From the NCBI GenBank assembly GCA_021827605.1, contig JAKAVF010000022.1:1-40079 (forward strand): a stretch of 40,079 bases of DNA, read 5' to 3'. The stretch's first letter is position 1, and each line of letters opens with the position of its first letter. The notes beneath the pieces are model-generated. The model was given only the letters and a program-made list of their open reading frames with translations, did no database searches and was not told where the DNA came from. Positions 13,597 through 23,421 of this stretch are shown piece by piece. This stretch comes from Microcaldota archaeon. Lineage in GTDB: Archaea; Micrarchaeota; Micrarchaeia; Micrarchaeales; Micrarchaeaceae. The translations under genes and the position numbers were made by a program.

Positions 13597-14193
13597 ATGC
13601 AGAGCATGTTAGAGATAGGGGAGGCAGCTCCGGAGATCGCGGCAAGGACATGGAATCCAGAAACAAAGAATATAGAGGAATTCAAGCTTTCGGAACACAG
13701 GGGAAGATGGGAGATACTGATTTTCTATCCCGGCGACTTTACCTTTGTGTGTGCAACAGACATCGAAGCTTTTGCTGCTTCTTATCCGGAATTCATCAAG
13801 AACGGCGCGGAGATATACGCGATAAGCACTGACAGCATATACTCGCACAAGGTATGGAGCGAGACGTCTCCGAGGGTCAAGGAGAGCAAGATACCACTCA
13901 TTGAGGACTTCAACAAGAAGGCCTCGGAGGTTTATGGATTCCTAAACAAGGGAAGCGGCGCAGCAAGGAGGGGCACTGTGATAATAGACCCGGAAGGAAG
14001 AGTACAGTACATAGCTGTGCACAGCGACGCCCTAGGGAAGGATGCAGAGCACATCTTCACCTCTTTCATGGGCCTGAAGTACGTGCACGACACTCCAGCT
14101 GAGAAGGGCCATATGTGCGCCATACCCGCGAACTGGAAGGCAGGGAGGAAGGCATTGGAGATAGATCTTGTAAATGACATAGGAAAGCTATGA
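13597..14193 (+). CDS. Two-Cys peroxiredoxin (AhpC/Prx family)
   Basis: 198 residues from ATG 13597, preceded by GGTGAG. The active-site segment is YPGDFTFVCATDIEAF: the peroxidatic Cys sits in the PxxxTxxC motif, but the usual CPT reads CAT. The resolving Cys is in HMCAIPANWK near residue 178. GTVIIDPEGRVQYIAV is the conserved C-terminal half strand. The enzyme reduces hydrogen peroxide and organic peroxides with thiol electrons, likely from a thioredoxin- or NrdH-type partner not seen here. It lies between a diphthamide gene and DNA-repair genes, so an oxidative-damage theme is plausible. Its 3' end overlaps the convergent endonuclease III gene by 6 nt. Confidence 0.92.
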   Translation: MQSMLEIGEAAPEIAARTWNPETKNIEEFKLSEHRGRWEILIFYPGDFTFVCATDIEAFAASYPEFIKNGAEIYAISTDSIYSHKVWSETSPRVKESKIPLIEDFNKKASEVYGFLNKGSGAARRGTVIIDPEGRVQYIAVHSDALGKDAEHIFTSFMGLKYVHDTPAEKGHMCAIPANWKAGRKALEIDLVNDIGKL

Positions 14194-14835
14194 TTTCTTA
14201 ACCGTACTTGAGGGGCAGATGTCGTTCAGCACGCAATCTTCGCAGTATTTCCTTCTTGCGGTGCACACGTCCCTTCCGAGCGCTATGAGAAGGTGGGTCG
14301 CGTTTACCCACTCCTTCTTCGGAACAAACTTCATCATATCTTTTTCTATCTTCTCCGCGTTCTTTGTATTGAAGAGGAAGAGCCTGTTTGCGACTGTTAT
14401 GCAGTGAGTGTCTATCGCAATGCCCTCAGTGACCCCAAAGGCGTTTCCCTGCACTACGTTTGCAGTCTTTCTCCCAACGCCGGGTATCTGCACAAGCTGC
14501 TCCATGTGCTTAGGCAACCTGCTATCGAAATTGTCATGTATATAGTGCGCCGCTTTGATTATATTCTTCGATTTGTTCCTGTAGAGCCCGAGCGTCCTGA
14601 CGTATGGGTAAAGGTCCTGTGGCCTTCTATCAAGGTAGTCCTTGATGTTCGGATATTTCCCAAAAAGAGCTGGCGTCACCTTGTTTACCTGCGCATCCTG
14701 TGACTGCGCAGAAAGCATGGTTGCCACAAGAAGCTCCCACGGATTCTTGTAGTGCAACCTGGTCCTGAGCTCCTCCGGATACTTCTTCTTTAATCTTGAG
14801 ATTATAGTATTTATTTTGCCTTTGGCGCTTTTCAT
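14188..14835 (-). CDS. nth: Endonuclease III (HhH-GPD DNA glycosylase/AP lyase), paralogue 1
   Basis: 215 residues from ATG 14835. LLVATMLSAQSQDAQVNKVT, the helix-hairpin-helix with catalytic Lys (IPGVGRKTANVV), the catalytic Asp in AIDTHC, and the 4Fe-4S cluster C-X6-C-X2-C-X5-C (CTARRKYCEDCVLNDIC) are all present. It removes oxidised pyrimidines and nicks the abasic site. The gene lies 23 nt downstream of the broken SDR gene on the same strand, so disruption of that gene could affect its expression. A second paralogue begins ~800 bp away on the other strand. Confidence 0.93.
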   Translation of the reverse strand: MKSAKGKINTIISRLKKKYPEELRTRLHYKNPWELLVATMLSAQSQDAQVNKVTPALFGKYPNIKDYLDRRPQDLYPYVRTLGLYRNKSKNIIKAAHYIHDNFDSRLPKHMEQLVQIPGVGRKTANVVQGNAFGVTEGIAIDTHCITVANRLFLFNTKNAEKIEKDMMKFVPKKEWVNATHLLIALGRDVCTARRKYCEDCVLNDICPSSTVKKS

Positions 14836-14858
14836 ACCCTCATCAAAAACCGTTATAG

Positions 14859-15608
14859 CTATGAGTATTGGTATCCACCGTCGACTACCACTGTGCATCC
14901 AGTCATATAACTTGCATCATCCGACGCAAGAAATAGGACAACATTTGCTTGCTCTTCAGGTTTGCTAAATCTCCCTAACGAAATATGCTTTTTCTCTTTT
15001 TCAACATATTCCTTTGTGAGTTTACTGTTCATATCAGTGTCAACTCACCCAGGCGCTACACAATTTACCCGTATATTGTACTGACCAAGAGAATGGGCAA
15101 AACTCCTTGTCATATTAATTACGCCGGCCTTCGCTGCGTTGTAATCAATAGAGTAAGAACCGCCCTGATCCAAGCCATTTGTTGAAGAGATGTTAATAAT
15201 TTTACCTGACTTTTGCTTCTTCATCTGCGGTATGGCATACTTGCAGCATAAAAATACGCCAAGTAGGTCAACATCCAAAGTTCTCTTCCACTGTTCAACA
15301 GTCCTCTCAGAAAAAGGCACGTCAAAAACAATACCAGCATTATTTACTAGGATATCTAATCTGCCAAACTTCTTTATAGCCAGGTCTATCATCTTTTTAA
15401 CCTGGCCCTCATCAGACACATCGCATTTGATTGCAATAGCATCAGAACCGAATTTCTTTATTTCAGCGGCTACCTCATCAGCTTTCTTGCCTGAATTCGT
15501 GTAATTGACTATTACATTCGCGCCTTCCCTGCCAAAGCCAAGTGCTATCGCCCTTCCAATACCTCTGCTCGCTCCTGTTACTAGGACAACCTTCTCTTTA
15601 AATCGCAT
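14859..15608 (-). pseudogene. FabG-like short-chain dehydrogenase interrupted by an in-frame TGA
   Basis: From ATG 15608 the frame reads a complete SDR: VLVTGASRGIGRAIALGF (TGxxxGIG cofactor loop), LVNNAGIV (NNAG), IINISST with catalytic Ser, and SIDYNAAKAG with the YxxxK pair. It stops at TGA (15045-15047) after NCVAPG. The same frame then continues 61 codons with the expected SDR C-terminus: [44 protein letters not shown], ending at TAG 14859-14861. The whole is 249 codons, the normal length. TGA replaces the position where VAPG is usually followed by Trp (TGG to TGA), so this is a one-base nonsense change, a sequencing error, or readthrough. TGA is a normal stop in the neighbouring genes. 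The gene looks AT-richer than its neighbours, suggesting recent acquisition. Confidence 0.85.
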
Positions 15609-15642
15609 AAAATGATTTATACTTATCTTGTTATTAAGATTT

Positions 15643-16299
15643 ATGGTGGGGGAAAGATTTCTCAATCCGAAGGAGGCGGAAGAGCTGACGTCAACACTCA
15701 GCAAATCCTACAAGGACGCAAAATACTACCTCCATTTTAAGACGCCAATCGATCTTGTAGTTGCTGCGATACTCTCTGCGCAGACGCGTGATGAGGTTGT
15801 CAATGCTGCTACTCCCAAACTCTTCTCAAAATACAAGACGGCAAAGGACTACGCACATGCAGACCCGCAGGAGCTTGTTGAACATATCAAAAGCATCAGC
15901 TTCGCAGGCAACAAGGCGCGCAACATCATCAACACGTGCAGAACCATAGACGAGAAGTACGGGGGCAAGGTGCCAGACAAGATGGAGCAGCTTGTCGAAC
16001 TGCCAGGGATAGGAAGGAAGACCGCAAACACTATACTCATCAACGCTTATGGGATAGTGGAGGGAATTCCCGTTGATACTTGGGTGATAAAGCTCTCCTA
16101 CAGATTGGGTCTCAGCAAGAACACGGATCCTGAGAAGATAGAACAGGACCTGATGAAGGTAGTTGACAAGAAGTACTGGCACAACTATGCATACGTAATG
16201 AAAGCGCACGGAAAGAAGATATGCCAAACGATACCTATTTGTAGCAAATGCCCGGTAAATGATATCTGCCCAAAGAATGGAGTTACAAAGAAGCTGTGA
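15643..16299 (+). CDS. Endonuclease III-like HhH-GPD glycosylase, paralogue 2
   Basis: 218 residues from ATG 15643. VAAILSAQTRDEVVNAATP, LPGIGRKTANTILINAYG with the catalytic Lys, and an iron-sulphur cluster motif at the C-terminus (CQTIPICSKCPVNDIC, spaced C-X5-C-X2-C-X5-C, one residue shorter in the first gap than in paralogue 1). The catalytic Asp is in VDTWV, where most EndoIII have VDTHV. These differences suggest a shifted substrate range. The 34-nt gap to the divergent SDR start contains a TATA-like TTTATACTTA, giving an almost leaderless start. Its 3' end is followed immediately (4 nt) by the endonuclease Q gene, so the two probably form an operon. Confidence 0.92.
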   Translation: MVGERFLNPKEAEELTSTLSKSYKDAKYYLHFKTPIDLVVAAILSAQTRDEVVNAATPKLFSKYKTAKDYAHADPQELVEHIKSISFAGNKARNIINTCRTIDEKYGGKVPDKMEQLVELPGIGRKTANTILINAYGIVEGIPVDTWVIKLSYRLGLSKNTDPEKIEQDLMKVVDKKYWHNYAYVMKAHGKKICQTIPICSKCPVNDICPKNGVTKKL

Positions 16300-20840: not shown

Positions 20841-20875
20841 TCCGGAATCTCGTTGTTGACGGCAAGGCAGCAAGC

Positions 20876-20884
20876 TTTATATAT
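20876..20884 (+). promoter_or_regulatory. TATA box for the gene at 20928
   Basis: TTTATATAT, centred ~48 nt before ATG 20928, separating this gene from the ribosomal operon. Confidence 0.5.
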
Positions 20885-20927
20885 GAGGATAAATTTCATA
20901 CCTAGCGGATAGAATAGGCGCATAGGC

Positions 20928-21518
20928 ATGACAAAGACGACTGCAAAATGCTCGGAGGCGCAGGCAGCGCTAAGGGAGCATCTGGGTAAGGTGATAACGG
21001 TCGAATTCTCATGGCGCGGCAACGATTTCCTGGAAACAAGCCTGTTGCGCGGTATAGAAGATGGCAGGCTGCTCCTCGAGACAGGCAGCGTGCCGTTCAG
21101 CTCCAGGAGCGCTGAGATAAGGCGCATCTATGACAGCAGAGGGCAGCAGATATTTTCAAATCCAGCTGCAAACCCGCGCATCAGGACTGGTTCGCGATCC
21201 TCCCTGTTCATTGACAGTGACGATGACCCGGTCCTCAAGCTGCGCACAATCGTCACCGTAAATGTGCAAAATGGCGAGAGAGCCAGGGACGAGTCGCACA
21301 CATACATAGTCGAGCTGAAAAAGGATGAGGACGGATGCTATGTCGCTTTTGCGCCGAAACTGAAAGGCTGTGTTTCAGGGGGGAGGAACAAGTCAGAAGC
21401 GCTGAGGAACATAAGAGAGGCGATTGCAGGTTTCATCAAACTTTTGAGGGCAAACGGAGAGGAGCTCCCGGTTGAAGATCTGTCAGAAATATACTCCCTG
21501 ATCGGGGCAGGCAGATAA
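20928..21518 (+). CDS. HicB-like antitoxin domain with a possible Sm-like N-terminal domain
   Basis: 196 residues. Residues ~124-178 are a HicB-family domain: YIVELKKDEDGCYVAFAPKL, GCVSGGRNKSEALRNIREAI, in the partial RNase-H-like fold that blocks HicA toxins. Residues ~10-76 are a separate small domain with LGKVITVEF, LETSLLRGIEDGRLLLE and a YDSRGQQIF end. That pattern resembles the five-stranded Sm/SH3-like barrel of archaeal proteins, and is inference. A ~45-residue linker with Arg/Ser joins them. The next gene, 38 nt downstream with its own TATA element, encodes a HicB-HicA fusion. No HTH or ribbon-helix-helix DNA-binding tail is visible, unlike many HicB antitoxins. Confidence 0.75.
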   Translation: MTKTTAKCSEAQAALREHLGKVITVEFSWRGNDFLETSLLRGIEDGRLLLETGSVPFSSRSAEIRRIYDSRGQQIFSNPAANPRIRTGSRSSLFIDSDDDPVLKLRTIVTVNVQNGERARDESHTYIVELKKDEDGCYVAFAPKLKGCVSGGRNKSEALRNIREAIAGFIKLLRANGEELPVEDLSEIYSLIGAGR

Positions 21519-21556
21519 CTTTTTTATATTAGGATCTTCATTGTACTTATGAGCCT

Positions 21557-22117
21557 ATGGGCTACAACTACAAAATAGGCATAAGGAAGGATGGGCGCTC
21601 CTACCTCGCAATAGTGCCAGCGCTTCCGGGCTGCATCAGCCACGGCGCCACAAAGGAGGAAGCGGTGTCAAACGCAGAGGCAGCCATCAGAGCATATGTA
21701 AAGGCAATCAAGAAGAAGAAGGAAAAGGTGCCGGCAGAGGACGATCCTCCACATACGTTCCTGCTTCCACCATCAGCAAAACAGGAAAAAGAAACAGCGC
21801 CGCACATAGAGCACAAGCTTCCGCAGGTGACAGGGAGGGAGATGGTCTCGATACTCAGGAAGGACTTCGGCTTCACTGTCGTGAGCCATGAGGGATCTCA
21901 TGCAATTCTCGAGAAGATGGCAAAAGAGGGAAGGATAAGGCTAAGTGTCCCAGAGCACGATTATGATCTCGGGAAAGGGCTGATAAGGGCGATACTGGAC
22001 GAGGCGCATGTTGACAGGCTGGACTTCTACCTAGCGGTGAACCCGCACGACAGGCAGCTAAAGAGGCTTGCCGCAACGCTGAGGCGAGAGCAGGAGGGAG
22101 CCAGCGCCACAGCATGA
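21557..22117 (+). CDS. Single-chain HicB-HicA antitoxin-toxin fusion
   Basis: 186 residues. Residues ~1-55 are HicB: YLAIVPALPGCISHGATKEE, then AAIRAYVKAIKKKKEKVP. A Pro/Glu/Lys linker (~58-85) follows. Residues ~88-158 are a HicA/YcfA domain: LPQVTGREMVSILRKDFGF, SHEGSHAILEKM (His115 is the expected catalytic His), IRLSVPEHDYDLGKGLIRAI. HicA is a double-stranded-RNA-binding mRNase; HicB neutralises it and usually is encoded by a separate gene. Here both are on one chain in antitoxin-toxin order. A TTTTTTATATTAG element just upstream gives a nearly leaderless start at ATG 21557. The basic C-terminal tail is an extension beyond HicA. An internal pair, self-inhibited until cleaved, is inference. 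Confidence 0.82.
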   Translation: MGYNYKIGIRKDGRSYLAIVPALPGCISHGATKEEAVSNAEAAIRAYVKAIKKKKEKVPAEDDPPHTFLLPPSAKQEKETAPHIEHKLPQVTGREMVSILRKDFGFTVVSHEGSHAILEKMAKEGRIRLSVPEHDYDLGKGLIRAILDEAHVDRLDFYLAVNPHDRQLKRLAATLRREQEGASATA

Positions 22118-22160
22118 AAAAACGCAAGGTTTTCTCCAAAATTTTCCTATTTTAACTACT

Positions 22161-22171
22161 TTTAAATATCT
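22161..22171 (+). promoter_or_regulatory. TATA box upstream of the gene at ~22190-22744
   Basis: TTTAAATATCT, the same core as at 23100-23110. It predicts initiation near 22190. Confidence 0.55.
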
Positions 22172-22273
22172 TGAAATGCGTTATAGATTTGTGATATTAT
22201 AGCAGGAAACACGGCAGAGAAGAGCACTACTGCGCTACCGCAATGGGAGACCGATAAGCCTTATGGCAGCAAG

Positions 22274-22744
22274 TTGGCACTGCTGGACACTCCAAAAGAG
22301 AGCGTCCTCCTCTTAGTTATAGAACCGCATAAGCATACCGGAATGGGCATAGACCCATCAAAGCTTGACTCTGATGGACTGCGTCCGCACCCAGGCGAGA
22401 GCGTAGAAAACATAAAATTCCTGAAATATGCGGATGGAAAGCCTGATGATGGACTTTATCCTCTAATCTATAAATACAGGAAAATAGACGAGCGCGGGAT
22501 AGGGAAGGTCTGGGAAAACCGCTATGGGCTAGGTGACACCTACTTCAACGGTCAAGATAAGCACCAGTTGTGGGGGGACACCTTCGAATCTGTGCGCGAT
22601 CCGATACAGGTCCAAAGGGACAACGGCTACTGGCACATCCTGATAAACGATTCGGACAGGCCAATAATGCTGCTGATAACGGTGAAGAAGGAAAACGCAC
22701 CAACGCACCTGGAGAGGACCGAATCCGAGGCGCCAAAATCGTAG
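22274..22744 (+). CDS. Orphan protein, start uncertain
   Basis: 156 residues from TTG 22274, the only standard start codon in frame. The frame is open back to 22187 and its first codons (about 29) read like coding sequence (TALPQWETDKPYGSK), while the promoter predicts a transcript beginning near 22190. The true start may therefore be a non-standard ATT or ATA at 22187, 22196 or 22199. A GTG at 22191 is out of frame and reaches a stop after three codons. The protein is soluble, with PHKHTGMGIDPSKLDSD, FLKYADGKPDDGLYPLIYKY and NDSDRPIMLLITVKK. I recognise no family. Confidence 0.55.
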   Translation: MALLDTPKESVLLLVIEPHKHTGMGIDPSKLDSDGLRPHPGESVENIKFLKYADGKPDDGLYPLIYKYRKIDERGIGKVWENRYGLGDTYFNGQDKHQLWGDTFESVRDPIQVQRDNGYWHILINDSDRPIMLLITVKKENAPTHLERTESEAPKS

Positions 22745-22823
22745 CCCATTGCGCAAGAGTTTTAGATTTTACCTGCGATTCAATATCTCACAATCAGAAC
22801 CATTCTATTAAAAGGCGATCTAA

Positions 22824-23009
22824 ATGATAAATGTAAGCAAAGAACCAGGATTACAGGCGGTTAGGCTGGAACTTCTTCGCGAGCCGGTATTGGCAAGGCT
22901 GCACGACGTTCCCCCAGCAAGGATAGGGGAACTGTCACCTGTAGAAGCAAGAAAGATAGTTGAAGAGGTCATAAACAGAAGGCTGAGCGAAACGGATGTA
23001 GAAAAATAA
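22824..23009 (+). CDS. Small orphan protein, helical
   Basis: 61 residues starting at ATG 22824. A mostly helical, amphipathic protein (VRLELLREPVLARLHDV, SPVEARKIVEEVINRRLSE) with no hydrophobic membrane segment. It lies in a run of small genes. No family recognised. Its length and lack of a clear ribosome-binding site leave it uncertain. Confidence 0.5.
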   Translation: MINVSKEPGLQAVRLELLREPVLARLHDVPPARIGELSPVEARKIVEEVINRRLSETDVEK

Positions 23010-23047
23010 TAGAGGAAACAGGCTGATCCTCAATAACTAATGCTCGT

Positions 23048-23092
23048 TTTAATGGCAAAACCATAGGATTTAATGCAAAAACCGACGGTTTT
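23048..23092 (+). promoter_or_regulatory. Direct repeats and palindrome just upstream of a TATA box
   Basis: TTTAATGGCAAAACC (23048-23062) and TTTAATGCAAAAACC (23069-23083) match at 13 of 15 positions with a 21-nt period (two helical turns). The second overlaps the perfect palindrome AAAACCG-A-CGGTTTT (23078-23092), which ends 7 nt before the TATA box at 23100. It is placed like a regulator-binding site. Confidence 0.4.
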
Positions 23093-23099
23093 CATACCA

Positions 23100-23110
23100 T
23101 TTAAATATCT
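23100..23110 (+). promoter_or_regulatory. TATA box for the gene at 23132
   Basis: TTTAAATATCT starts 32 nt before GTG 23132, so the transcript would be leaderless. Confidence 0.6.
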
Positions 23111-23131
23111 CAAGCGACGCTAATTATATCA

Positions 23132-23326
23132 GTGAACCCAATGACAGAAAAGGACAGGGCAGCCGGAACGCAGGCAGATGGGGAGATATCAAGGACCGGG
23201 ACCTACGTCTCGCCTACTGGAACGCGCGTGGAACTCAGAGTGAACGGATTCGGCGTAGTTTCTAGTGTAACCATTAGAAAGCCTGACGGAGAAACCGTTA
23301 CTTACTCGCCATACAGCAAAAGGTAA
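23132..23326 (+). CDS. Small beta-rich orphan protein
   Basis: 64 residues from GTG 23132; ATG 23141 is an alternative. After a polar N-terminus it reads as beta hairpins: SPTGTRVELRVNGFG and VVSSVTIRKPDGETVTY. No family recognised. A clear promoter and possible operator precede it, so it is probably expressed under specific conditions. The gene end and the following bases hold a 13-nt duplication, GCAAAAGGTAAGA, at 23316-23328 and 23333-23345. Confidence 0.5.
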   Translation: MNPMTEKDRAAGTQADGEISRTGTYVSPTGTRVELRVNGFGVVSSVTIRKPDGETVTYSPYSKR

Positions 23327-23345
23327 GATACGGCAAAAGGTAAGA
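23316..23345 (+). repeat. Short tandem duplication over a stop codon
   Basis: GCAAAAGGTAAGA occurs twice at 23316 and 23333 (17-nt period). The first copy contains the stop codon of the small gene. Probably slippage. Confidence 0.6.
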
Positions 23346-23421
23346 CAGGTAACAAATTAGGCTAATTATTAAAAGTAACTAGTTTATAGTAGCTTAAAGT
23401 ACGCAATGCAGTCGATATTCC

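What the first reader, a model, noticed from the sequence alone, without database searches (positions are those of the whole stretch)
21557..22117. HicB-HicA fused in one chain: a single-gene toxin-antitoxin
HicA and HicB are usually two proteins. Here an N-terminal HicB domain is joined by a Pro/Lys/Glu linker to a HicA domain that keeps the catalytic His in SHEGSHAIL. A permanent intramolecular pair would be inactive unless the linker is cut, or could have become an RNA-binding regulator. The fused order and the linker are direct reading; the mechanism is inference.
Basis: partly seen in the sequence, partly recalled or inferred. Interest (0 to 1): 0.72.

Follow-up and report, generated by a model that had tools for sequence, protein, structure and literature searches.

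The report
Fused HicB–HicA single-gene toxin–antitoxin
This archaeal gene really does join a HicB antitoxin and a HicA RNA-cutting toxin in one protein, but that layout was already catalogued in 2024, and here it looks like a recent, local fusion of an ordinary neighbouring gene pair.

Summary
One open frame, 21557-22117 (+), encodes 186 aa with a HicB domain (PF15919, aa 5-60) and a HicA domain (PF07927, aa 93-151), both above Pfam's cut-offs. The four residues invariant in 15 aligned sequences are kept, including the catalytic-position His115 of "GSH". AlphaFold2 gives a confident chain (pTM 0.83) with HicB and HicA folds joined by a short disordered linker. No frameshift is needed: codon bias supports this frame throughout. 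The novelty claim is not supported. Gerdes (2024, PMC10865869) defined this architecture as Class 12: one gene encoding a small HicB, without a DNA-binding domain, fused to HicA. Among 301 genomes of the phylum, the other hits examined are two-gene hicB-hicA pairs (Class 2). About 40 matches span both domains in one frame, all with at least one stop, and one such TAG-ATG pair lies in this same genome. The window gene is the only stop-free copy found. It sits in a roughly 2.6 kb lineage-specific insertion between rpl15 and a glycosyltransferase gene, with its own TATA-like box, next to a second gene carrying a HicB domain. Most likely mechanism: an autoinhibited HicA ribonuclease held off in cis by HicB. 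A decaying fusion is the main rival.

The parts
21557..22117 (+). hicBA fusion gene, 186 aa plus stop
   Evidence: single open frame; PF15919 and PF07927 both above cut-off; codon bias in frame along its whole length
21569..21736 (+). HicB domain (aa 5-60), partial RNase H fold
   Evidence: PF15919 36.9 bits; AF2 strands 7-12, 15-19, 26-30, helix 33-53, strand 67-69; Foldseek to HicB 6g1c, rmsd 1.2-1.6
21782..21802 (+). flexible linker core (aa 76-82)
   Evidence: only stretch with pLDDT below 50; lies where two-gene relatives have their stop/intergenic region
21833..22009 (+). HicA toxin domain (aa 93-151)
   Evidence: PF07927 44.3 bits; AF2 helix-strand-strand-strand-helix, pLDDT 93-98; Foldseek to HicA 6g26_E TMt 0.85 and 1whz TMt 0.82
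21899..21901 (+). codon of His115, the catalytic-position histidine of the GSH motif
   Evidence: invariant column in 15 aligned sequences; role of this His in characterised HicA from PMC11594946
22052..22111 (+). extra C-terminal helix (aa 166-185)
   Evidence: AF2 helix, pLDDT about 85-90; absent from all 14 aligned two-gene relatives
21521..21529 (+). TATA-box-like element of the fusion gene, about 32 nt before the ATG
   Evidence: TTTWWATAT: 6 matches in the window against 0.91 expected, 4 of them in this insertion
20928..21518 (+). neighbouring gene: unknown N-terminal half plus a second HicB domain (aa 126-182)
   Evidence: PF15919 28.9 bits; listed matches in 301 genomes cover only its HicB part; its HicB groups with the fusion's HicB, support 91/83
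20841..23421 (.). lineage-specific insertion between rpl15 and a glycosyltransferase gene
   Evidence: the two flanking genes lie within about 20-370 bp of each other in 11 of 13 congeners

Best explanation
The gene is a fused HicBA toxin-antitoxin of the Class 12 type, made by loss of the stop codon (and of the hicA start) between the two genes of an ordinary Class 2 hicB-hicA operon. The N-terminal HicB domain folds back on the C-terminal HicA domain and masks its RNA-binding face and His115, so the ribonuclease is off by default. Toxin would be released when HicB is displaced, refolded or degraded, by a trigger or by proteolysis. Shown here: the single frame, both folds, the retained active-site positions, the lack of a recognisable DNA-binding domain, and the two-gene layout of relatives. 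Inferred: docking in cis, RNase activity, the trigger, and any role in stress or virus defence.
For: Both domains above Pfam cut-offs in one frame. Invariant G113/H115/P132/G141 retained. AF2 mean pLDDT 88.4 and pTM 0.83 for the whole chain, which suggests a defined relative placement of the domains, although coordinates could not be inspected. Solved HicA and HicB structures are the nearest folds. Across 301 phylum genomes every other listed match spanning both domains in one frame (about 40) carries at least one stop, and all pairs examined run hicB then hicA. The same genome has a hicB-TAG-ATG-hicA pair in frame (L005). The gene has its own TATA-like box and no good internal start for a free HicA: the in-frame GTG 21827 and ATG 21842 fall at the very start of the HicA domain, with a purine-rich stretch only before the ATG. 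HicB inhibits HicA by packing a helix on the HicA sheet in solved complexes (PMC10865869).
Against: No experiment. Found in one genome only. In small trees the fusion has the longest terminal branch for both domains (HicB 1.52, HicA 2.36), as expected if constraint is relaxed. The HicB-HicA interface was not measured.
Confidence: 0.6

Rival explanations
1. A decaying toxin-antitoxin module: the fusion locked the toxin off permanently and the gene is drifting to loss.
For: Singleton in the phylum; longest branches of both domains; another fused pair, Phd-RelE of Ralstonia, has been suspected a dead end (PMC4826407).
Against: Active-site positions kept, coding bias in the domains as strong as in conserved genes (0.24-0.29 against 0.12-0.34), own TATA-like box, and an added ordered C-terminal helix.
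Confidence: 0.22
2. [quoted passage not shown]
For: Permanent 1:1 tethering; extra C-terminal helix with several Arg/Lys; a second HicB-bearing gene next door.
Against: The catalytic-position His and surrounding invariants are kept, which a pure binder would not need.
Confidence: 0.1
3. A sequence or assembly error removed a stop codon; the cell has two genes, a normal Class 2 operon.
For: Relatives and the second hicBA of this genome are in-frame pairs with one stop, so one wrong base would be enough; the assembly is a single 52-contig draft.
Against: The place is not just a stop turned into sense: the usual hicA start (Met two residues before the KLP/RLP motif) is also gone, replaced by IEHKLP; the frame-0 coding score stays positive through the linker.
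Confidence: 0.06

Closest known systems
Class 12 fused HicBA (Gerdes 2024, PMC10865869)
   Same: One gene, HicB first and HicA second, small HicB without DNA-binding domain, canonical HicA and partial RNase H folds
   Different: Gap between the domains longer than in the paper's modelled example (aa 60 to 93 here; aa 60 to 74 in MBI3260764.1) and an extra C-terminal helix; no stop-free relative among the 301 phylum genomes searched
Class 2 hicBA operons (PMC10865869)
   Same: Same order, sizes and folds; the likely ancestor; present in this genome (contig C12) and widespread in the phylum
   Different: Two genes, separated by a stop or overlapping out of frame
Class 11 fused HicAB (PMC10865869)
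   Same: HicA and HicB in one chain
   Different: HicA first, and a C-terminal HTH or RHH DNA-binding domain
CapRel-SJ46 and EzeT fused toxin-antitoxins
   Same: Toxin and antitoxin in one chain, inhibition in cis
   Different: Unrelated toxin domains and activities; only the logic is shared

Membership tests
Class 12 fused HicBA | Monocistronic, HicB N-terminal and HicA C-terminal | tested here: met
Class 12 fused HicBA | Small HicB without a DNA-binding domain | tested here: met
   no HTH/RHH match in Pfam and no such unit among the AF2 elements of the HicB half
[quoted passage not shown]
Class 12 fused HicBA | HicB domain with beta-beta-beta-alpha-beta partial RNase H fold | tested here: met
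   strands 7-12, 15-19, 26-30, helix 33-53, strand 67-69
Class 12 fused HicBA | Placement among the published Class 12 sequences (Table S1, Fig. S12 of PMC10865869) | not testable with these tools
Type II toxin-antitoxin | HicA half toxic through RNase activity | not testable with these tools
   only retention of the His and fold was shown
Type II toxin-antitoxin | HicB part neutralises the toxin by direct contact | tested here: inconclusive
   whole-chain pTM 0.83 is consistent, but the interface could not be inspected
Type II toxin-antitoxin | Two separate proteins | tested here: not met
   one chain; so it may work like a type II system but is not a canonical one

The most novel reading that the evidence does not exclude
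A two-gene sensor module: the fused HicBA is an autoinhibited ribonuclease whose state is set by the neighbouring protein, which carries a competing HicB domain behind an unknown beta-rich domain, so that toxin release occurs by exchange of HicB partners rather than by proteolysis.
Probability: 0.07. Interest if true: 0.55.

Novelty: new member of a known kind. Interest (0 to 1): 0.27.

Why it matters
It documents a fused HicBA in a small-genome archaeon, with its probable two-gene precursor layout visible in relatives and in the same genome. That makes the origin of Class 12 from Class 2, whose direction the literature left open, more concrete. It also offers a compact test protein for whether a toxin tethered to its antitoxin is live, regulated or dead.

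Tried and rejected
Frameshift artefact: rejected on frame and codon bias. HicA half without its fold: rejected. Widely conserved fusion: rejected, no other stop-free copy in 301 phylum genomes, no match in phage records, none in a close-relatives-only scan of viral contigs; the one plasmid match is a Rippkaea (cyanobacterial) record with separate HicA and HicB annotations. Recombination of unrelated halves: trees too weak to decide. An Sm-like fold for the N-terminal half of the neighbouring gene: helix plus five strands predicted, but low confidence (pTM 0.45) and no Sm match among the listed PDB hits. Flanking repeats marking the insertion: only short imperfect ones. NCBIfam and PADLOC gave nothing.

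Full report
Observation. The open frame at 21557-22117 (+) encodes 186 aa without a stop. Pfam finds PF15919 (HicB-like antitoxin) at aa 5-60 with 36.9 bits and PF07927 (HicA toxin) at aa 93-151 with 44.3 bits, both above the cut-off of 27. PHROGs agrees: HicB-like at aa 2-64, toxin at aa 90-152. A profile of 15 hicBA sequences matches solved HicA and HicB chains. In that alignment G113, H115, P132 and G141 are invariant and the fusion keeps all four.

Frame. A codon score trained on conserved genes of the window is positive in frame 0 for the HicB part, linker, HicA part and C-terminal tail (0.29, 0.11, 0.24, 0.23) and negative in the other two frames, so no frameshift is needed. The linker score is the weakest but close to the mean of equally short stretches of conserved genes (0.12). 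Raw reads are not available.

Structure. AlphaFold2 on the 15-row alignment gives mean pLDDT 88.4 and pTM 0.83. The alignment pairs the fusion with two-gene relatives whose single intervening stop was read as Gln, an alignment device only. The HicB half shows three strands, a long helix and a short last strand (67-69); the HicA half shows helix-strand-strand-strand-helix; only aa 76-82 fall below pLDDT 50. Nearest solved folds are HicA (1whz, 6g26_E) and HicB (6g1c). An extra helix at aa 166-185 has no counterpart in the relatives. Coordinates could not be inspected, so docking of HicB over H115 is inferred from the high whole-chain pTM and from solved HicAB complexes (PMC10865869).

Distribution and origin. 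Protein searches of 164 genomes of the order and 301 of the phylum found no other stop-free match spanning both domains. A profile search of the same 301 genomes found about 40 further matches spanning both domains in one frame, each with at least one stop. Those examined are hicB-hicA pairs (Class 2 layout), many with exactly one stop between the parts. The genome itself holds such a pair on contig C12, where the TAG stop of hicB is followed directly by ATG of hicA in the same frame (L005). In relatives hicA often starts as M-x-K/R-L-P; in the fusion the same place reads IEHKLP, so both the stop and the start have gone. This points to fusion of a Class 2 operon; the reverse direction is not formally excluded.

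Context. In 11 of 13 congeners rpl15 and the glycosyltransferase gene lie next to each other (gap about 20-370 bp); here 2.6 kb separates them. Of the other two, G007 lacks the glycosyltransferase there, and the closest relative, G008, has a contig end just after rpl15, so it could not be checked. The insertion holds a gene with an orphan N-terminal half and a second HicB domain (20928-21518), the fusion, and at least one more gene (22274-22744) that has scattered relatives. TTTWWATAT occurs 6 times in the window against 0.91 expected; four of the six lie in this insertion, before its genes, one of them about 32 nt before the fusion's ATG. The fusion is thus probably transcribed on its own with almost no leader (inference).

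What is known. Gerdes (mBio 2024, PMC10865869) sorted HicA contexts into 14 classes; Class 12 is a monocistronic hicBA encoding HicA fused to a small HicB, resembling Class 2 in order and size, with some members judged to be under selection and with regulation unknown. A 2015 review (PMC4826407) had already noted putative HicA-HicB fusion proteins in databases and described EzeT as a single-chain toxin-antitoxin. All Class 12 features that could be tested here are met; placement in the published Class 12 set, toxicity and neutralisation were not testable. The finding is a new member of a known kind.

Mechanism and rivals. Most likely the protein is a HicA ribonuclease held off in cis by HicB (0.6). 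A decaying module is the main rival (0.22): the fusion is a singleton and carries the longest branches of both domain trees. A repurposed RNA-binding regulator (0.1) is less likely because the catalytic positions are kept. A base error at a lost stop (0.06) cannot be excluded without reads, but would have to coincide with loss of the hicA start.

Noticed in passing
window 20928-21518: Gene with an orphan N-terminal half (predicted helix plus five strands, low confidence) and a C-terminal HicB domain; the HicB part groups with that of the fusion (91/83), which may mean tandem duplication.
   Followed up: partly
L005 1486-1929 (G000 contig C12, 24682-25119): A second, ordinary hicB-hicA pair in the same genome, in one frame with TAG directly followed by ATG.
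   Followed up: yes
window 20841-23421: About 2.6 kb between rpl15 and a glycosyltransferase gene that are nearly adjacent in most congeners; four TATA-like boxes lie in it.
   Followed up: partly
window 22274-22744: Protein of unknown family downstream of the fusion with matches in 10 other of 163 related genomes searched, several in longer open frames.
   Followed up: partly
L087 (G003 contig C18, 12.2 kb): A contig of a congener carries several HicB/HicA matches close together, perhaps a toxin-antitoxin cluster.
   Followed up: no
window 14188-14898 (-) and 15628-16299 (+): Two proteins that look by eye like endonuclease III relatives lie close together; not checked with a family search.
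   Followed up: no
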